In this document: positions 145 through 8,394 of the stretch, in pieces
How positions within the stretch are numbered: position 1 is the stretch's first letter
Layout: every line of letters starts with the position of its first letter
Origin: Bacteroidaceae bacterium
GTDB taxonomy: Bacteria > Bacteroidota > Bacteroidia > Bacteroidales > Bacteroidaceae
Length of the DNA: 64,000 nt
Direction: 5' to 3'
NCBI GenBank assembly: GCA_017529865.1
Contig: JAFXNA010000012.1
Coordinates: 1 to 64,000, forward strand
The notes under the pieces: generated by a model
What the model saw: the letters and a program-made list of their open reading frames with translations, nothing else
Databases searched by the model: none
What the model was told of the DNA's origin: nothing
Position numbers and translations under genes: made by a program

Positions 145-927
145 TTAGAATCTCATGGAGTTAGAAATATTCATAAGATAATCGTTTAAATGTGTATTAC
201 CCCTTCTTGTAAGGAACAAATACATATATATAGGGCTATGATTCTGTTTTTCCATGACGATCTTATAAGCATAAGGATACTCTTTCATCGTATTATAACT
301 ACTGTTATTAACCGAATATGTTATATATCCAATCTTATTTCTTGCAGGAAATGAACATACATATATGGCATCTGCATTCGATTTTTGTGTCAGGGAATCA
401 TTTTGGTGAACAGTAGCATATTTCATCAGATACCCATCCTCGCGTCCATATTTGCGGTTCTTCTGATGAGCTTCATAGCTTGGAATATCATCAGCATTTG
501 AGGTGATGTCTGCACTCAAATTGTCTTTAATCAATTGATGGGATATGTTTTTTGCCTGTACTGGGTTTGACATCCTTAGAAAATCAAGGAATAACATGCT
601 TTGACCATCTGTGGACTTCATCGTTATACAACGATTATCAACACCATCCAACTTTGGACTCAATTTTATGTTGCCACCATTGTGTAGCGGGACACATTTG
701 TATTTCGAGAATGGCAAATTGAATTCTTTCATACCATTACCTCTGATGTATGCGGTTCTTAATTCATTAACAACATCTTTCGGACAATTTTTCTGGTTAT
801 AATTATTCACCAAAGAACTTAGAGTTGAATTCCATTTCTTGTCCTTTACGTCAGTTGGTAGTTTTTGAGCTGATATATTCAATGATATCAACATCACACC
901 TATTATTGATATTAATATTCTAATCAT
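145..927 (-). CDS. Secreted partner protein, copy 1 of the duplicated cassette (unknown function)
   Basis: A protein of about 260 residues with an N-terminal signal peptide ending near NISAQ, so probably periplasmic or extracellular. I chose the ATG at 927 because it opens the signal peptide and lies 19 bases after the stop of the preceding gene; an in-frame ATG at 981 would place the start inside that gene. It is clearly homologous to the product of 3476-4273: both share NCPKDVV near residue 45, a CVP segment, MKSTD followed by FLDF, a NAD-I-CSF block, HSPI, and a C-terminus of the form NI-S/T-K/N-S-M/I-R/Q-F. I recognise no domain and no catalytic motif. It follows a cysteine-peptidase-like lipoprotein gene, as its paralogue does. 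A role as inhibitor, chaperone or substrate of that lipoprotein is inference. An IS element sits immediately after its stop codon. Confidence 0.8.
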   Translation of the reverse strand: MIRILISIIGVMLISLNISAQKLPTDVKDKKWNSTLSSLVNNYNQKNCPKDVVNELRTAYIRGNGMKEFNLPFSKYKCVPLHNGGNIKLSPKLDGVDNRCITMKSTDGQSMLFLDFLRMSNPVQAKNISHQLIKDNLSADITSNADDIPSYEAHQKNRKYGREDGYLMKYATVHQNDSLTQKSNADAIYVCSFPARNKIGYITYSVNNSSYNTMKEYPYAYKIVMEKQNHSPIYMYLFLTRRGNTHLNDYLMNISNSMRF

Positions 928-946
928 GTTATCGACAATCATTTGT

Positions 947-1753
947 TTATTTAATATAATCATTAATAACGACATTTCCATTAGGGCTTAAAGAAGGAAC
1001 AGTATCTCCTAGTATTTCGTATGATCTGTATTTAGCACTTTGAGAATCATATGAGTTTAGTGTATAGGTTGTTTTTACATAACTACGTTCAATTGATTCG
1101 GCATTCTCTGCATGGTTTGAAATTACCAATATGCCATTTAATGAACAATTAAAGAACGATGCTCCTACATACCTGTTATACTTATTAGCAGTAAGACTAA
1201 ATATTCTTACTGCATCTAACATGTCTGCCCTAGGAATACCGCTGGAAGAATAACTAGGGTAAAATAATTGCAATGTTGCATTTACAGTTTCAAGATTTAA
1301 AAGCCAATTGTACGAAATAGAATGCCCAACACAATCTTTCCATGTACAAATATGTCCAGATCCCTCAACACTACTACGTTTTTTTCTAGAGGTTTTCTTC
1401 TCAGTTAATCCTAATAAAACTTCATTCCCATTTTTATATGACGTTTTAATGAATTCATATACTCTTTCTGATATATTAACTTCTTTACCAGATTTCTCTT
1501 TTATTGACGCCTGACCGTCTTTTTGAATAATTACTGTTAGCCTAGTACGGGCTTTAGCTACTACTTCCCAATCTTTATCTGTCATGTGTGCAAAAGAAGA
1601 TTCTTTTATGTCCAGATATTCATAGTTAATATCTGCACGTGTTCCATTATAGTTAATACTCTCTTCTGGATTCTCAAAATCGAACCACTCATCACTTGTA
1701 CAAGCAACCATTGCCATTACTGCAAGAGTACTACAGAATAATAATTTTCTCAT
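947..1753 (-). CDS. Papain-like (clan CA type) cysteine-peptidase-like lipoprotein, copy 1
   Basis: A 268-residue lipoprotein with lipobox Cys18 (MVAC) followed by TSDEWFDFE, a charged stretch like the export signals of surface lipoproteins in this phylum. Residues 35-125 form an N-terminal region that may act as a propeptide, ending in the basic linker RKKRSS. The C-terminal part has DCVGHSISY (Cys141), ISNHAENAE (His214) and LNSYDSQS (Asp236), in the order expected of a Cys-His-Asp/Asn peptidase. The three residues are conserved in the paralogue at 4280-5107 while surrounding sequence varies, which supports an active site. C39, C47 (staphopain) or C10-like families are possible; I cannot place it. 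A partner gene starts 19 bases downstream. Activity is inferred. Confidence 0.75.
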   Translation of the reverse strand: MRKLLFCSTLAVMAMVACTSDEWFDFENPEESINYNGTRADINYEYLDIKESSFAHMTDKDWEVVAKARTRLTVIIQKDGQASIKEKSGKEVNISERVYEFIKTSYKNGNEVLLGLTEKKTSRKKRSSVEGSGHICTWKDCVGHSISYNWLLNLETVNATLQLFYPSYSSSGIPRADMLDAVRIFSLTANKYNRYVGASFFNCSLNGILVISNHAENAESIERSYVKTTYTLNSYDSQSAKYRSYEILGDTVPSLSPNGNVVINDYIK

Positions 1754-1873
1754 GTTAAAATTGTTTTTAGTTTGATTAATAATGAATGAATATATAATTA
1801 TACTCCAATGTATAAATCATAATAGTATCTTGTACACCTGAAATTGTTTGTCTTTCTTTTGATTAATTTGAAT

Positions 1874-3466
1874 TTATTGACTTTTCAAATAGTTATCCGC
1901 TTTACTTTTTACTTCATCAACCATTGGTGATGGTATTTTAACCTTCTTGTTATGTATCTTCTTAGCAATGAGTATGGCGTGTGCCTTGTCTTTCTTGCAA
2001 TTATATGCCTGCAATAAATAGCTATAAGGTAAGAATCTACACGGAATCATATTGGATGCCAATGTAGCATATTTAATAACAGAATCATTCTGATGTATAT
2101 TCTGATAGTTATCAGCATATAATAATGCTACGTCATAATCATATATCTCCTTCAAACATTCATGCAGTATCTGAAGACTTTCATCATATCGATTGATAAA
2201 ATTAAGTTCGGCGGCATAATTATAAAGGAAGTACCCGTCATACCGTAGAATTGTATTATCATGGATTTTTTGATAGAACGGAATCATTTGTTCTGTCTGT
2301 CCTTCCAATGAGCGGTCAGCAATACGTTTCCAATTGAGTTCTGCAATGACAGTATGGTAGAGGAAATAAAAGGCAATGAATGTAAAAGATATAAAGATGA
2401 TTCTGAGTGCTACATGAATCCTCTTTGGTAAATACCGTGTGAATGGTAGTATAAATAAAATAGTCATTAATATCCATACAGGAGCATATTGTAACGGATA
2501 AGAAAAAGTCGCAAGTACCGCAAACGACGAGTAACAGGCTACAACTACAGAAGAATACCAACCTCTGTGTCTTAATGCCATCGTGATAGGAATTGTAATT
2601 AATATCATAAAAACTAACAGCCCTATTATCCCAAAATTAAATGCTACATTGATAAATTCGTTGAATGGATGGGAAATATTATCGGCCAGCCAGGCAAAGC
2701 GATCTCCTTCATGTTGTTGAAAGTAATTAGCCTGTTCATACATATATTCAGACTTAAAGCCGTTTATCCCATGCCCAAGCCATATCTTATCAAATATTAG
2801 CGGCATTGATGTTTTCCAAATGAACAAACGTCCGTAAGTGGAATTCGCCTTTAATTGAAATAATAGAATTGACACACCGCAAATAAGAATGATAACCACA
2901 GATGCCAGCACCTTACTATGCAGTAGTCTCTTTAGCCAAGTAGTATCAATAGAAAGCACAACGAGAGATGACACTATTATGGAGATTATGGCGGTACGAG
3001 CACCAGAAAGCACAATTGCTGACAGGTAAAGCAGTAGCAAAGAACTGATTGCGATCTTAATGATTCTATGGCTATTTATACACCATGATACCCCTATAGG
3101 AAATAATAGCGCGAGAACTGCCGTAATCCCTGCAGGATTTTCAAAGCTACCAGTAATTCTGAAACTTGGATGATTCGAAGGAAAAATGCTGATATATTGT
3201 AATAGGCCGTATAATGCCAAGAATGCACCCGTAATGAATAAGAAATGCATAGTGACAGGTGAGCAGATGTGCCGAACCAATCCTCGCGGTTTTTTGGTTA
3301 ATAGGATGAATACAATAACTACGAGCCCACCAAATATGGCAAGATACTTCTTGATGTCATTTTCAACGTTGCAGAAAGAATTTGAGGTAATAAATAAACC
3401 CAACGCATACCAACATACGAAAAGTATGTTGATTGCGTTATGTTTAATATTACTGATTCTTTCCAT
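1874..3466 (-). CDS. O-antigen ligase/polymerase-like membrane protein with C-terminal TPR region
   Basis: A 530-residue protein with about ten membrane segments between residues 10 and 385, then a soluble helical tail of TPR type (about 400-525). The periplasmic loop carries WLGHGINGF and later ISHPFNEFINVAFNFGI, which match the Wzy_C/WaaL pattern (S-H-x-x-N-E-F). Family members ligate or polymerise polysaccharide on undecaprenyl carriers, and some are protein O-oligosaccharyltransferases. There are no other polysaccharide genes nearby. The gene sits between the two peptidase/partner cassettes, 9 bases after the partner gene upstream, so it is probably co-transcribed with them. A task such as modifying these exported proteins is a hypothesis only. 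Confidence 0.85.
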   Translation of the reverse strand: MERISNIKHNAINILFVCWYALGLFITSNSFCNVENDIKKYLAIFGGLVVIVFILLTKKPRGLVRHICSPVTMHFLFITGAFLALYGLLQYISIFPSNHPSFRITGSFENPAGITAVLALLFPIGVSWCINSHRIIKIAISSLLLLYLSAIVLSGARTAIISIIVSSLVVLSIDTTWLKRLLHSKVLASVVIILICGVSILLFQLKANSTYGRLFIWKTSMPLIFDKIWLGHGINGFKSEYMYEQANYFQQHEGDRFAWLADNISHPFNEFINVAFNFGIIGLLVFMILITIPITMALRHRGWYSSVVVACYSSFAVLATFSYPLQYAPVWILMTILFILPFTRYLPKRIHVALRIIFISFTFIAFYFLYHTVIAELNWKRIADRSLEGQTEQMIPFYQKIHDNTILRYDGYFLYNYAAELNFINRYDESLQILHECLKEIYDYDVALLYADNYQNIHQNDSVIKYATLASNMIPCRFLPYSYLLQAYNCKKDKAHAILIAKKIHNKKVKIPSPMVDEVKSKADNYLKSQ

Positions 3467-3475
3467 TCTCGAATT

Positions 3476-4273
3476 CTAAAACTGGATGGATTTCGTGATG
3501 TTCTGGAGATACTTGTCCAAAGCCTTGTCTCCTTCTTTCTTGCAGAACAAGAAAAAGACAATAGGCGAATGTCCTTGTTTGACCATTGCTATCTCATACA
3601 CAGCCTTGTATTCGTTCAATGTATTATAATCCTTATGGAGGGAATCGGGATAATAACCTACGTTTGACCTTTGGGCGAATGAACATGCGTAAATCGTATC
3701 TGCGTTGCAGTTCTTGGCCAACCGGCTGCTTCCCGTATAGGTTTTCACATGGCTATTATAAATCTTTTCCACATCTATGTCCTTATTTCTGCCAATTCGA
3801 TAATTCAATGCAGAGCTTTCCGACTGCCCCATTTCATTGGTGAGGACGTTCTCAACCAACAACTTTCTTGTGTCCACAGGTTTGTTCTTTAAAAGGGTTT
3901 TACGGAAACCTATCTGAAAGAAATCCAGGAATACCATGCAATTTCTGTCTGTTGACTTCATTGAAAACATGAGGTTGTCATCATAAATAACGTCAGGGTG
4001 TACTTTCATTCCAACGCTTCTGCAATCAGTCTTGACAGGTACACAATCAAATGATTTAAAGGGAAGGCTGAGTTTTGACAATGTGGCAAACGACTTGAAC
4101 TGTTGAGCCAATTGACTTACAACATCTTTTGGACAGTTCTCCTTATTATATTTATCAATCAAGGAATCTGTCTGCACTATTTCGTTTAGGTTTACAGAGT
4201 CATTTAAAACACTTGAAGCGAAAACATCAATTATGCAAAAAGCATAAAAAACCAATGTGAATAAAGTCTTCAT
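3476..4273 (-). CDS. Secreted partner protein, copy 2 of the duplicated cassette (unknown function)
   Basis: A 265-residue exported protein with signal peptide (LVFYAFCIIDVFAS). It is the paralogue of the protein at 145-927: NCPKDVV about residue 45, CVP, MKSTD then VFLDFFQ, NADTIYACSF, KQGHSPI, and the ending NITKSIQF. Several cysteines are conserved in both copies, in line with disulphides in an extracytoplasmic protein. It starts 6 bases after the stop of the peptidase-like lipoprotein gene at 4280, so the two are translationally close. No known domain was recognised. The tight pairing recalls staphopain/staphostatin or SpeB/Spi gene order, but this protein is much larger than those inhibitors and carries its own signal peptide. 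Confidence 0.8.
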   Translation of the reverse strand: MKTLFTLVFYAFCIIDVFASSVLNDSVNLNEIVQTDSLIDKYNKENCPKDVVSQLAQQFKSFATLSKLSLPFKSFDCVPVKTDCRSVGMKVHPDVIYDDNLMFSMKSTDRNCMVFLDFFQIGFRKTLLKNKPVDTRKLLVENVLTNEMGQSESSALNYRIGRNKDIDVEKIYNSHVKTYTGSSRLAKNCNADTIYACSFAQRSNVGYYPDSLHKDYNTLNEYKAVYEIAMVKQGHSPIVFFLFCKKEGDKALDKYLQNITKSIQF

Positions 4274-4279
4274 GTGGGA

Positions 4280-5107
4280 TTATTTTATATACTGAGGAAT
4301 AAGGGGATAATTGTCAAAATAATCTAAAGCAGGAACCGTATTGCTTTTAATATCAAAGCAATAACATATTGAATTCTTGCTATCTAATAAAGTTATTCTA
4401 TAATGACCTGCTACTTTAACTATTGCTATTGTGTTTACTGCATGTCCTGGAATTTCTGCAATGCCATATATGCTAGTTTCATTAACAGGAGTTGTTTCGG
4501 TAAAACAATTTTGAGAAGATGCTGTTGAATTAAATAATTGCACTGCACGAAGAAGATTATTACGATGGATGCCACTGTCTGCATAACAAGGGAAGACCCT
4601 GCTAAGGCTATCATTTACAACATTAATATCTAAGTTATAATAGTATGCTATAGCCTCTCCTACGCAGTCAGTTTGTGTCCCTCCAGTTGGAATAATTTGT
4701 TCAGGTGAGGACCTCTTTAACCTACGTATGCGTTTCGTCTTCTGTGCCAGAATATTATTACTATTATCATAGAATTGTTTGACTATCGAAAAGAGTTTTT
4801 CCGAGATATTAACTTCCCTTCCATTGCTTTCAAGAATAGAATATAATCCATTTTTTTTAACATTAATAGTTAAACGTGCAGAGGCTTCTATGATATTATC
4901 CCAATCTTCTTTAGTAAACTTTTGAATAGAAGATTCCTTAATATCCAGATATTTATAGTCAATATCTGCACGTGTCCCATAACAGTCAATTGTTTCGTCT
5001 TGGTTCTCCAATTCGAACCACTCATCACTTGTACAAGCAACCATTGCCATTACTGCCACTGCCACCAGCAGGGCATACATACTTTCTCGTTTGTTTACTT
5101 GTTTCAT
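4280..5107 (-). CDS. Papain-like (clan CA type) cysteine-peptidase-like lipoprotein, copy 2
   Basis: A 275-residue lipoprotein with lipobox Cys25 (MVAC) followed by TSDEWFELE. Residues 44-62 (YGTRADIDY, YLDIKESS) are almost identical to copy 1. A basic linker RRLKRSS (about 128-134) precedes the C-terminal domain, which has TDCVGEAIAY (Cys148), EIPGHAVNTIAI (His222) and ITLLDSKNS (Asp242). GHAVNTIAI followed by a strand ending in Asp is close to what is seen around the catalytic His of papain-like bacterial peptidases. Maturation by cleavage at the basic linker is plausible but not shown. Its first 30 codons share near-identical DNA with the JAMM-like gene at 5747-6379, though the mature proteins are unrelated. 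Confidence 0.75.
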   Translation of the reverse strand: MKQVNKRESMYALLVAVAVMAMVACTSDEWFELENQDETIDCYGTRADIDYKYLDIKESSIQKFTKEDWDNIIEASARLTINVKKNGLYSILESNGREVNISEKLFSIVKQFYDNSNNILAQKTKRIRRLKRSSPEQIIPTGGTQTDCVGEAIAYYYNLDINVVNDSLSRVFPCYADSGIHRNNLLRAVQLFNSTASSQNCFTETTPVNETSIYGIAEIPGHAVNTIAIVKVAGHYRITLLDSKNSICYCFDIKSNTVPALDYFDNYPLIPQYIK

Positions 5108-5184: not shown

Positions 5185-5706
5185 TCATTTCCGTTGTTTG
5201 ATTTCCTTTTTTGCATCTTCCCTCATCTGTTCAGGAAGAAGCTCCCACATATCAACAAAATACATTTTTTCTGAGTCTTCAACTCCCGCTTTTACCCATG
5301 AACGGTAAGGGATGTTAATAAAATCCAGCCCATAATAATTACCAAATATTACATCCATTGGCTCGCCTGTATCCTCCCAAATATTAACGAACGAAGCAAA
5401 GCTCCATCCTAATTCTTCATGGGTCGCCCTGTCATAACTGAATTTGACTTCATAGTATTTTCTGCCAATTAATGGCTTTTCAAAGTCTTCTGCCTCTTCA
5501 TCTTCTTCGTACGTTTTTAACGGAGAAATCACGGGCACCACCTTGCCTTGAATCCATCCTGGTCCGAAGTTATTCGTTACTTCTCTCGCCAATTTCACAA
5601 GATACTCATTTCTTGCTTTCTCATTCATCTTGCTCAAGTTCTTTTGTTGAGCAAAAACTGAGCAACTACATATCAATGCAATTGCCATAATAATCATTGA
5701 TTTCAT
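5185..5706 (-). CDS. Small secreted protein of unknown function
   Basis: A 173-residue product with a signal peptide cleaved near SCSVFAQ. The mature part is highly charged, with an acidic patch TYEEDEEAEDFEK around residue 70, followed by a region rich in aromatic residues (YYEVKFSYDR, NYYGLDFINIPYRSW) and a basic C-terminus. I recognise no family. It lies between the JAMM-like gene (40 bases upstream) and the second peptidase/partner cassette (77 bases downstream), so it is probably part of the same operon and exported like its neighbours. Confidence 0.7.
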   Translation of the reverse strand: MKSMIIMAIALICSCSVFAQQKNLSKMNEKARNEYLVKLAREVTNNFGPGWIQGKVVPVISPLKTYEEDEEAEDFEKPLIGRKYYEVKFSYDRATHEELGWSFASFVNIWEDTGEPMDVIFGNYYGLDFINIPYRSWVKAGVEDSEKMYFVDMWELLPEQMREDAKKEIKQRK

Positions 5707-5746: not shown

Positions 5747-6379
5747 CTAGTCTAATCGTTGATTGAATGCACCATATTTCGAAATTTTCTTTGTTTTATT
5801 TTTGGACATGCCTCCTCTTAATGTATTTACTTTATAATCATATAGGATACCAGGGATTCCATAATTATTGACGAATGAAATATCCAAATCTGTCGGTCCT
5901 GTTTTTCGCTTCTTTCCTGGACAATACTCTAATGTTGTATGAGTATGAAAGAATGCGCACATATCCGATGGTGGATCAATGTTAACCCTTAACCTTGCGT
6001 TTGTATCACAACCTATGGTATCCCCATAGATTGTTTCGCTAAATGAGTATTGATGACTTGCCTTATTATACCTAATGAATATTGCCAATTCTTGTCTTCC
6101 TGCAGGACTAGCAAGTGATTTTGTCTCTTCCCAAAGTACATTCAGTTTATTTTTAACGACTGTTGAAGCAAGAATCTCATCAACAGTTGGGAATTGGGAG
6201 ACTTCAGGTCCCTCCATTTCACTTCTCGTCGTCCTATCCGCCAAAGTGTAGAGTTCATCTTGAGGTGAGTACCCATCAAACTCCTCATCGGCTGAGCATG
6301 AGCCATAGATGGTGATGCCAATCATTACTGCCACTGCCACCAGCAGGGCGTACATTCCTTTTAGTTTGTTTACTCTCAT
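5747..6379 (-). CDS. Lipoprotein with a JAMM/MPN-like metallopeptidase motif
   Basis: A 210-residue lipoprotein with lipobox Cys28 (GSC) and SADEEFDGY after it, a likely surface-export signal. Near the end, CAFFHTHT (His145, His147) is followed by GPTDLD (Thr163, Asp166), and ELAIFI (Glu97) precedes it; this fits the zinc-binding pattern E...HxH...S/T-x-x-D of JAMM/JAB1 isopeptidase-like domains, with a longer than usual loop between the histidines and the Thr. Such domains cleave isopeptide or peptide bonds, but the longer loop leaves activity uncertain. It is the first gene of the operon that continues to 145. Its signal-peptide DNA is nearly the same as that of 4280-5107. Confidence 0.65.
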   Translation of the reverse strand: MRVNKLKGMYALLVAVAVMIGITIYGSCSADEEFDGYSPQDELYTLADRTTRSEMEGPEVSQFPTVDEILASTVVKNKLNVLWEETKSLASPAGRQELAIFIRYNKASHQYSFSETIYGDTIGCDTNARLRVNIDPPSDMCAFFHTHTTLEYCPGKKRKTGPTDLDISFVNNYGIPGILYDYKVNTLRGGMSKNKTKKISKYGAFNQRLD

Positions 6380-6394
6380 TGTTTTTTTATTTAA

Positions 6395-6416
6395 GCAACC
6401 ATTGGTTGCAAAGTTA
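6395..6416 (-). promoter_or_regulatory. Promoter -7 box and adjacent palindrome for the 6379-145 operon
   Basis: On the minus strand TAACTTTG (6416-6409) fits the Bacteroidota -7 consensus TAnnTTTG. It overlaps a palindrome, GCAACCATTGGTTGC (6395-6409), that covers the expected start of transcription, 16 bases before the first ATG. The palindrome could be an operator or a 5' hairpin. No clear -33 TTTG is present. Confidence 0.55.
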
Positions 6417-6456
6417 ATAAAACTATTTTAATTTCACTCTATTCTTTTGTTTTTTC

Positions 6457-8394
6457 TTACCACCATACCACATTTCCATCCTTGTCAATTAGGAAGGCAC
6501 GTTCATCCATTCCTCGTGTGAGGTCGCTTACCCACATCAAGGCTCCTTCGGGGATATTGTCATAATGGAGGACGTTGCCAGTGGCTGTCTTTGTGCCGCA
6601 TGAAGTCCATTCGTTCCGTTCGTTCCAATAGCGCAACAGATAGGTGTCGCCAGGATGGATGTCGTTGTCATCCCCTCGGGGCACTATACGTACATAACCT
6701 ATCTCTGTCGGTCTGCCCATATCCATTCCTACCCAGTTGCCGTCGCCTCCACCTGTCTCGAAGTTACTCAGCCAGTCTTGGTCGAAGGCTCTGAGGATGG
6801 CTGCCTGGTCGTCTGTACTACCTATCGGCATTCCTTTCACCTCTGCACTGTCTGCCGAGAAGAATGCCAGTTCAGCTATACTGCCAAAGCTGCCGTTGGG
6901 AGAGAGGTAACGCCAATAACGATAGGGCTTGTCCGCATGAATCGGGAGTTTGTCGGGCAGGTTCAGGTCTTCAATCGTATATAAGGTGTCGGCATCGGCA
7001 AAGTCGGCACGGTTGGATGCCTGTATCATGCCATGGAGCAGACGCTTGCGCATCTTTGCCACATTGTTCGATTGATAGTACTTGCGGCGGATATCCACAC
7101 TGCGTTTCTTCTTCGGGTTGCACTTTATATAGTCGATGCTGCCGTCGGTATGGAGGATGAACGGCAGGGAGATGGGACGGAGTTGTTCACCGTCATAGCC
7201 GAGGGCGATGTAAAGGACATTGCGTCCCATCTTGGTGAAATGGGCCTTTCCAGAATGGACGGTGCCATAGTCCACAACACTCCAGTCGGAGCCGATGGCT
7301 GTGAATGTGGCAATATATGCGTATGGCTCAACCACACGGATACTGTCAAGGAGTGTGATGTCAAGGTCGGAGGTACGAAAGTACTGGTCGGTTATATCCT
7401 TCTGACAAATCTTGAACGGATGCTTATAGGCAGACTTCTCCCTGTATTCGAGCCGTTCAGGATTGATGGCATAGGTGTTACGATAGACTTTGGGAATACG
7501 CTTGTCGGTGAAGAACGCAGAGCCAGGGTAAGACGAGACATCCCATTCGGATGTGAGTTCCTCCCCTCGGTTGTTGAGAATCGTGTACCAGTTGTGTCCG
7601 GCACGGTAGCGTCCCCAATAAGGTGTCTCGTCAATGACGGCAGGGATGCCCACACTGCGAAAGGTCAATACGGCAAGGGTCACATAGTCCATGCATGCAC
7701 CAAAGGTGATGTGTGGAAGGGTGGCTGCACTGAGCATCGGATACCCTTTCCTATCCCATATTCCGAAGGGACGCACTCGCCAGTTGATTTCGCTGCGGAT
7801 GGTATTGGCTGCATTGATGGTTGTCTCATAGGTGTCGTCATCATGCACCATGTTGTTGAGTCCCCATGTGAAGATGGTAGAGAGTGAGTCGCGCCACTCA
7901 TCCATCTCCTGTTTCTCTACCGCCTTATAGGGCAGCAGCCATTCACAGAACTCATCAAAGGTGAGGTGACTTGCCCATGGGCGGGTCTTCCACTGTTCGA
8001 ATGCCTGGTCGATATTACGTATCAGGAAGTCGGCTTTGATAACCTTGATGTCACTGATGGTGTCGTGGTCAAGGTTGGGGAAACGGGTGTCACAGATACG
8101 CAGCAGGGAATCGCTCTGCTCCTTAGGGCTTAAATCTGATTTGAGAATCTCCTTTGCTATTTCATAATAGCTGTGGATACTGTCGCTGCGGTACGAGTAG
8201 TGCTCGGGCATGTTCTCAATCAGGAACATCGCCGCTGCGAGCTTTTCCGGGTCATCCTTATAGTGGTCGAGCACCTTCTCCAATTCACTGCGGTTATCTC
8301 CCGCATATCGCAGTGCTTCGTTCCTGCTGTCTTTGCATGATGACAGCAGGATGGCGGACAGCAGTATCGCAAATATCTGAAGATGTCTTCTCAT
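6457..8394 (-). CDS. Transglutaminase-like lipoprotein with C-terminal discoidin-like region
   Basis: A 645-residue lipoprotein (LLSSC, Cys20). The central part has a transglutaminase-like core: FGACMDYVTLAVLTFRSVGIPA (Cys234), GHNWYTI (His267) and SEWDVSS (Asp285), the Cys-His-Asp triad of the superfamily. Residues about 350-430 look like a beta domain. The last 150 residues (from YRYWRYLSPNGSFGSIAELAFF through WLSNFETGGGDGNWVGMDMGRP) resemble an F5/8 type C (discoidin) carbohydrate-binding fold. Homologues in this phylum are cell-surface proteins of unsettled function, likely acting on peptides or glycoconjugates. It lies between the accessory operon and the DUF3244 region, and no good promoter was found for it. 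Confidence 0.85.
   Translation of the reverse strand: MRRHLQIFAILLSAILLSSCKDSRNEALRYAGDNRSELEKVLDHYKDDPEKLAAAMFLIENMPEHYSYRSDSIHSYYEIAKEILKSDLSPKEQSDSLLRICDTRFPNLDHDTISDIKVIKADFLIRNIDQAFEQWKTRPWASHLTFDEFCEWLLPYKAVEKQEMDEWRDSLSTIFTWGLNNMVHDDDTYETTINAANTIRSEINWRVRPFGIWDRKGYPMLSAATLPHITFGACMDYVTLAVLTFRSVGIPAVIDETPYWGRYRAGHNWYTILNNRGEELTSEWDVSSYPGSAFFTDKRIPKVYRNTYAINPERLEYREKSAYKHPFKICQKDITDQYFRTSDLDITLLDSIRVVEPYAYIATFTAIGSDWSVVDYGTVHSGKAHFTKMGRNVLYIALGYDGEQLRPISLPFILHTDGSIDYIKCNPKKKRSVDIRRKYYQSNNVAKMRKRLLHGMIQASNRADFADADTLYTIEDLNLPDKLPIHADKPYRYWRYLSPNGSFGSIAELAFFSADSAEVKGMPIGSTDDQAAILRAFDQDWLSNFETGGGDGNWVGMDMGRPTEIGYVRIVPRGDDNDIHPGDTYLLRYWNERNEWTSCGTKTATGNVLHYDNIPEGALMWVSDLTRGMDERAFLIDKDGNVVWW

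What the first reader, a model, noticed from the sequence alone, without database searches (positions are those of the whole stretch)
145..5107. Duplicated cassette: cysteine-peptidase-like lipoprotein plus secreted partner
Two gene pairs, 1753-947/927-145 and 5107-4280/4273-3476, are paralogous in both members and in order, with only 6-19 bases between the genes of a pair. The first gene keeps a Cys-His-Asp set (Cys141/His214/Asp236 and Cys148/His222/Asp242) while the rest diverges, and a basic KRSS linker before the catalytic part suggests processing. Known systems with a secreted papain-like protease followed by a dedicated partner are staphopain/staphostatin, SpeB/Spi and the C10 proteases of Bacteroides fragilis. 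Here the partner is larger, exported, and unlike those inhibitors. I know of no description of this pair.
Basis: partly seen in the sequence, partly recalled or inferred. Interest (0 to 1): 0.75.

Follow-up and report, generated by a model that had tools for sequence, protein, structure and literature searches.

The report
Surface peptidase lipoproteins with swappable partners
A rumen Bacteroidales genome carries two copies of a surface-anchored cysteine-peptidase gene followed by a secreted-protein gene, but the second gene is not a dedicated partner: both belong to a mix-and-match set of surface proteins that share near-identical leader sequences and have no described family.

Summary
In detail: two adjacent, same-order gene pairs are paralogous in both members (41% and 33% identity, E 3e-57 and 2e-41), with gaps of 19 and 6 bases. 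Across 11 homologues (17-44% identical) the only invariant residues of the C-terminal domain are Cys, His and Asp. A profile-profile test aligns them one-to-one with the triad of C39 peptidases; none of 400 shuffles matches that score. So 'papain-like' is supported at sequence level, with C39 rather than C10 or C47 as the nearest family, and no Pfam, NCBIfam or PDB match. AlphaFold2 was uninformative.

Only 6 of 11 peptidase genes have the partner; 35 of 42 partner-family places lack the peptidase. The partner domain is also fused to a BlaR1-type sensor and to other secreted domains.

The wider picture is an operon type: transglutaminase-like lipoprotein plus Wzy_C-TPR protein, with interchangeable lipoprotein/secreted-protein cassettes. 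In several genomes, lipoprotein genes with unrelated bodies share 84-94% identical 5' ends. Function is inferred, not shown: surface peptidases with recruited secreted modules. A polymorphic effector/immunity system is not excluded. Interest 0.5; new variant of a known kind.

The parts
4280..5107 (-). Lipoprotein with C39-like cysteine-peptidase domain, copy 2 (275 aa)
   Evidence: ORF; paralogue of copy 1; 11-member family with invariant C148, H222, D242; C39 profile match
4970..5107 (-). Leader of copy 2: signal peptide, lipobox Cys25, acidic LES-like TSDEW, then GTR motif
   Evidence: Sequence; 47 of 52 bases identical to the leader of the JAMM lipoprotein although the bodies are unrelated
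4742..4960 (-). N-terminal domain (about residues 50-122, YLxI...N-I/V/M-S...LF), also found without the peptidase
   Evidence: Matches limited to this domain: at the C-terminus of other exported proteins and in a BlaR1-like protein (L061)
4283..4699 (-). C39-like catalytic domain of copy 2; Cys148 at 4666-4664, His222 at 4444-4442, Asp242 at 4384-4382
3476..4273 (-). Sec-exported partner, copy 2 (265 aa)
   Evidence: ORF; paralogue; 42-place family; no Pfam/NCBIfam/PDB family
1874..3466 (-). Wzy_C (O-antigen ligase-type) membrane protein with TPR-like tail, between the two pairs
   Evidence: Pfam PF04932 E 5.5e-18; relatives in 32 of 101 family genomes
947..1753 (-). Lipoprotein with C39-like cysteine-peptidase domain, copy 1 (268 aa); Cys141 at 1333-1331, His214 at 1114-1112, Asp236 at 1048-1046
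145..927 (-). Sec-exported partner, copy 1 (260 aa from the ATG at 927)
5747..6379 (-). Third cassette, first gene: lipoprotein with JAMM-type motif (E97, HTH 145-147, T163, D166)
   Evidence: Motif conserved in 3 sequences; shares its leader with 4280-5107
5185..5706 (-). Third cassette, second gene: secreted protein (Yc), following the JAMM lipoprotein in 3 of 3 loci
   Evidence: Adjacency cluster c110-c104; seen fused to the partner domain in L193
6457..8394 (-). Transglutaminase-like lipoprotein with F5/8 type C domain, recurrent neighbour
   Evidence: Weak Pfam matches below cut-off; next to Wzy_C-TPR in many loci

Best explanation
The first gene of each pair encodes a lipoprotein that is exported, lipidated and, judging from its LES-like acidic start, displayed on the cell surface. 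It has a small N-terminal domain, a conserved R-x-K-x4-E joint and a C39-like (papain-clan) cysteine-peptidase domain with a complete Cys-His-Asp triad. [Shown by sequence: domain order, invariant triad, similarity to C39, lipobox. Inferred: surface display, peptidase activity.] The second gene encodes a Sec-exported protein whose domain is a general extracytoplasmic module, not a dedicated inhibitor: most copies lie away from the peptidase and some are fused to a BlaR1-type sensor or to other secreted domains. [Shown.] The pairs are cassettes in a modular surface operon (transglutaminase-like lipoprotein, Wzy_C-TPR protein, interchangeable lipoprotein/secreted-protein pairs) in which new bodies are put behind a common leader by recombination. 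[Leader sharing shown; mechanism inferred.] Most likely working: the lipoprotein is a tethered peptidase acting on proteins at or near the cell surface, and the secreted protein binds the same target or the peptidase and thereby positions or restrains it. [Inferred, weakest step.]
For: In 11 homologues the invariant residues of the C-terminal domain are only C, H and D. hhalign of these against 25 C39 sequences scores 24.6 (P 0.0028) over 95 columns with C, H and D in register; the best of 400 column-shuffled controls is 19.5, and C10 and C39_2 sets give no signal. Partner domain: 42 places, 35 without the peptidase; fused to Peptidase_M56/BlaR1 (L195), CarboxypepD_reg (L170) and the Yc domain (L193). 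Operon core of TG lipoprotein and Wzy_C-TPR with variable pairs between. Leaders 84-94% identical at DNA level between genes with unrelated bodies in four genomes. LES precedent: polar residue then acidic residues after the lipid Cys (PMC5080379).
Against: The C39 similarity is modest (hhalign probability 11%, local mode only) and rests on one family comparison; the canonical Gln six residues before the C39 Cys is not conserved here. AlphaFold2 models were too poor to confirm any fold (pLDDT 38 and 43). No data on expression, localisation, activity or substrate. Peptidase genes are scarce (9 of 399 family genomes), so pairing statistics rest on 11 genes.
Confidence: 0.45

Rival explanations
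1. Dedicated protease-inhibitor pair: the secreted protein is the cognate inhibitor that protects the periplasm from the peptidase, as B. fragilis Bfi is thought to do for Bfp.
For: Tight adjacency (6 and 19 bases), parallel duplication of both members, six of 11 peptidase genes followed by the family. Bfp/Bfi show that a lipoprotein cysteine protease plus exported inhibitor-like protein exists in Bacteroides (PMC2873492).
Against: Five of 11 peptidase genes are followed instead by BspA-like leucine-rich or other secreted proteins; 35 of 42 partner places have no such peptidase; the domain is fused to BlaR1 and CarboxypepD_reg. No match to inhibitor families in Pfam.
Confidence: 0.15
2. Polymorphic surface-lipoprotein effectors (kin or competitor directed): a common leader with swappable catalytic bodies (C39-like, JAMM, others), the following gene giving immunity, comparable in logic to SitA/SitI of myxobacteria or the APD1/APD2 lipoprotein effectors of Amoebophilus.
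For: Shared leaders with unrelated bodies, tandem arrays, patchy distribution, catalytic domain types (C39, JAB) that occur in polymorphic toxins (PMC3482391; SitA: PMC8546572).
Against: The second gene does not track the body; partner domains occur in sensor proteins and in loci without any effector; the shared part is only a leader of about 40 residues, with no escort or delivery domain; no orphan immunity arrays recognised.
Confidence: 0.2
3. Maturation cassette: the peptidase (with the transglutaminase-like and JAMM lipoproteins) trims or cross-links the co-encoded secreted protein, which Wzy_C-TPR may glycosylate, building a surface structure.
For: Co-location with Wzy_C-TPR and TG lipoprotein; PglL-type enzymes often lie next to their target proteins (abstract of PMC3643930).
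Against: No shared cleavage motif sought or found in the varied secreted proteins; whether Wzy_C-TPR is a ligase, polymerase or protein glycosyltransferase is unknown here.
Confidence: 0.15

Closest known systems
Peptidase family C39 (PF03412, ComA/bacteriocin-processing peptidase domain)
   Same: Order and alignment of Cys, His and Asp; D/N-C at the active site in 11 of 11
   Different: No ABC transporter, not cytoplasmic; on an exported lipoprotein; no conserved Gln at -6; below Pfam detection
Bacteroides fragilis C10 proteases Bfp with inhibitor-like Bfi
   Same: Lipidated cysteine protease with adjacent exported small protein in Bacteroidales (PMC2873492)
   Different: Not C10 (no Pfam or hhalign match); partner twice as long and mostly found without the peptidase
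Staphopain/staphostatin (C47) and SpeB/Spi (C10)
   Same: Cysteine protease followed by a second gene
   Different: No match to C47, C10 or inhibitor families; second gene not dedicated
APD1/APD2 lipoprotein effectors of Amoebophilus; SitA lipoprotein toxins of Myxococcus
   Same: Lipobox, conserved N-terminus and polymorphic C-terminus (PMC3482391, PMC8546572)
   Different: Here the shared part is essentially the leader; second gene not specific to the body; no delivery system seen

Membership tests
Peptidase C39 | Cys-His-Asp triad in C39 order and profile similarity | tested here: met
   hhalign P 0.0028, triad in register, 0 of 400 shuffles reach the score
Peptidase C39 | Match to Pfam PF03412 or PF13529 | tested here: not met
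   No match at E up to 1 for any of 10 members
Peptidase C39 | Conserved Gln about six residues before the Cys (oxyanion hole) | tested here: not met
   Column not conserved in A8
Peptidase C39 | N-terminal domain of a peptide-exporting ABC transporter | tested here: not met
   268-275 aa lipoproteins, no ABC domain
Peptidase C10 (SpeB, Bfp, interpain) | C10 profile with GC[VT]..AMAQ-type active site | tested here: not met
   No Pfam match; no hhalign signal with C10-type proteins of relatives
Staphopain C47 / staphostatin | C47 protease and staphostatin profiles | tested here: not met
   No Pfam match for either member or their families
Dedicated protease-inhibitor pair | Inhibitor gene tracks the protease gene | tested here: not met
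   6 of 11 and 7 of 42
Dedicated protease-inhibitor pair | Second product inhibits the first | not testable with these tools
   Needs purified proteins
Papain-like fold | Three-dimensional structure | tested here: inconclusive
   AlphaFold2 pLDDT 38 with 3 sequences; Foldseek uninformative
Surface lipoprotein of Bacteroidota (LES) | Lipobox Cys followed by polar then acidic residues | tested here: met
   C-TSDEW, C-SADEE; consensus from PMC5080379; localisation itself not tested
JAMM/JAB domain (gene 5747-6379) | E, HxH, S/T-x2-D | tested here: met
   Conserved in 3 sequences, no Pfam match
Polymorphic lipoprotein toxin system (APD1/2, SitA) | Conserved N-terminus with unrelated C-terminal bodies | tested here: met
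   the shared part is the leader only
Polymorphic lipoprotein toxin system (APD1/2, SitA) | Cognate immunity gene specific to each body | tested here: not met
   Partner families not specific to body, except JAMM-Yc, 3 of 3

The most novel reading that the evidence does not exclude
Rumen and gut Bacteroidaceae carry a leader-swapping system of surface lipoproteins: recombination puts unrelated enzymatic bodies (C39-like, JAMM and others) behind one genome-specific leader, each with its own secreted companion, forming a polymorphic surface-effector repertoire used against or to recognise neighbouring cells or host proteins.
Probability: 0.2. Interest if true: 0.8.

Novelty: new variant of a known kind. 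Interest (0 to 1): 0.5.

Why it matters
None of the main proteins except Wzy_C has a Pfam or NCBIfam family above cut-off. If the reading is right, it adds a lipid-anchored C39-like peptidase to the known uses of that fold, and it shows a way in which gut Bacteroidota diversify their surface proteins by keeping the leader and changing the body. The leader-sharing can be tested at once in public genomes, and it would explain why such lipoproteins look unrelated by ordinary annotation.

Tried and rejected
PDB profile search: nothing for the lipoprotein, one chance-level hit for the partner. A first hhalign with 1-4 sequences per family showed no signal; only the 25-sequence C39 set did, and the global mode of the same test did not. 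From memory I considered a Mog1/PsbP-like fold for the partner because of its C-terminal pattern; no tool supports it and it is not claimed. I considered the N-terminal domain as a C10-type propeptide; it occurs at the C-terminus of other proteins, so a pure propeptide role is unlikely. Weak Pfam hits such as 'UK virulence determinant' (E 5e-4, below cut-off, one member only) were taken as chance.

Full report
WHAT IS THERE. The window is the start of contig 50 of a 3.3 Mb genome. The nearest named record with the same locus is uncultured Bacteroidales RUG13277 and the next is a Bacteroidaceae genome from sheep rectum. The two pairs are true paralogues in both members. The genome holds no further copy of the lipoprotein.

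THE FIRST GENE. Eleven family members were collected. They share the lipobox Cys, an N-terminal domain with invariant L54, A75, R78, N100 and S102, a joint R129-x-K131-x4-E136, and then a domain of about 135 residues in which exactly three columns are invariant: C148, H222 and D242. Identity to the window copy is only 17-44%, so this pattern points to a catalytic site. No Pfam or NCBIfam family reaches its cut-off and no PDB entry matches. A profile-profile comparison with 25 C39 domains fetched from the same bacterial class gave 95 aligned columns, score 24.6 and P 0.0028, and put Cys on Cys, His on His and Asp on Asp; the best of 200 column shuffles of either side was 19.5 and 18.8. C39_2, C10, the reversed profiles and unrelated local families gave nothing. 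The hhalign probability is only 11%, so I treat C39-like as supported, not proven. The canonical C39 glutamine before the Cys is not conserved. Structure prediction was uninformative because only three sequences could be used; its low-confidence secondary structure (helix from the Cys, strands next to His and Asp) agrees with the reading but cannot carry it.

THE SECOND GENE. The partner family is broader than the peptidase family: matches lie in 28 of 399 family genomes against 9 genomes with full-length peptidase genes. In the fetched loci, 7 of 42 partner places have the peptidase within 1.5 kb and 35 do not; 6 of 11 peptidase genes have the partner, while the other five are followed by BspA-like leucine-rich proteins (L053, L054, L060) or by two other secreted proteins (L055, L059). 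The partner domain also stands at the C-terminus of a BlaR1-type M56 membrane protein (L195), behind a CarboxypepD_reg domain (L170; L188 looks alike), and behind the Yc domain that elsewhere follows the JAMM lipoprotein (L193). Several copies lie next to ECF-sigma/anti-sigma-like genes or MG2-type proteins (these two names rest on sequence reading). A dedicated inhibitor is therefore unlikely.

THE OPERON TYPE. Wzy_C-TPR relatives occur in 32 of 101 sampled family genomes. In about 55 loci the transglutaminase-like lipoprotein is a recurrent neighbour, and short lipoprotein/secreted-protein pairs with many different bodies stand between or after them. Lipoprotein genes in one genome share their 5' ends although the bodies are unrelated: in the window 47 of 52 bases between the JAMM and the peptidase lipoprotein, in G273 93% over 154 bases from -13 to +140, in G081 94% over 162 bases, in G159 89% over 97 bases. 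The shared stretch ends near the T-R motif after the acidic surface-export-like signal.

HOW IT PROBABLY WORKS. Shown by sequence: secretion signals, lipidation site, intact triad, C39 likeness, modular partners, leader sharing. Inferred: display on the outer surface (by the LES rule of PMC5080379), peptidase activity, a role of the secreted protein as positioning or restraining module. The substrate is unknown. Rivals are a Bfp/Bfi-like inhibitor pair (PMC2873492), a polymorphic lipoprotein effector/immunity system in the style of APD1/APD2 and SitA (PMC3482391; PMC8546572), and a maturation cassette; the evidence for and against each is given in the fields.

NOVELTY AND VERDICT. Searches of the paper library for such a locus found no description, within the limits of an open-licence library.

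Noticed in passing
window 5747-6379 / 5185-5706: Third cassette: lipoprotein with JAMM motif (E, HTH, T, D) followed by a secreted protein; same adjacency in L065 and L107.
   Followed up: partly
L064:1066-8082; L056 and L067; L057: Several lipoprotein genes in one genome with 84-94% identical 5' ends and unrelated bodies, suggesting leader exchange or gene conversion.
   Followed up: partly
L061:5949-7922, L062:2039-2668, L063:301-1017, L032, L033: The N-terminal domain of the peptidase lipoprotein occurs alone, at the C-terminus of other exported proteins and in a BlaR1-like protein; in L062 it precedes a hydrophobic Gly-rich tail.
   Followed up: no
L195:5261-7264: Partner domain fused to a BlaR1-type Peptidase_M56 membrane protein, hinting at a ligand-sensing role.
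   Followed up: no
L170 (own genome, contig 50 at 68-82 kb): Second locus in the same genome with partner-domain, Yc and leucine-rich secreted proteins but no peptidase lipoprotein.
   Followed up: partly
window 1874-3466 and loci L052-L141: Wzy_C proteins with TPR-like tails as recurrent neighbours of a transglutaminase/F5-8C lipoprotein across the family; function unknown.
   Followed up: partly
L066:5944-6552, L068:6723-7268: Two further leader-type lipoproteins with C-H-D patterns (NECGIW..., QNCGLW...) lacking the N-terminal domain; possibly other C39-like bodies, not confirmed by hhalign.
   Followed up: partly
window 1; G173 contig 20 base 1: Both assemblies of this locus end within or just after pair 1, so further cassettes may lie beyond the contig edge.
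   Followed up: no
L065:4812-5428: The JAMM lipoprotein there has its leader and body in different frames: broken gene or assembly error.
   Followed up: no
window 6380-6470, minus strand: TAACTTTG upstream of the JAMM lipoprotein resembles a Bacteroides -7 element (TAnnTTTG, from memory), seen by eye only; a promoter there would make it the start of a transcription unit.
   Followed up: no
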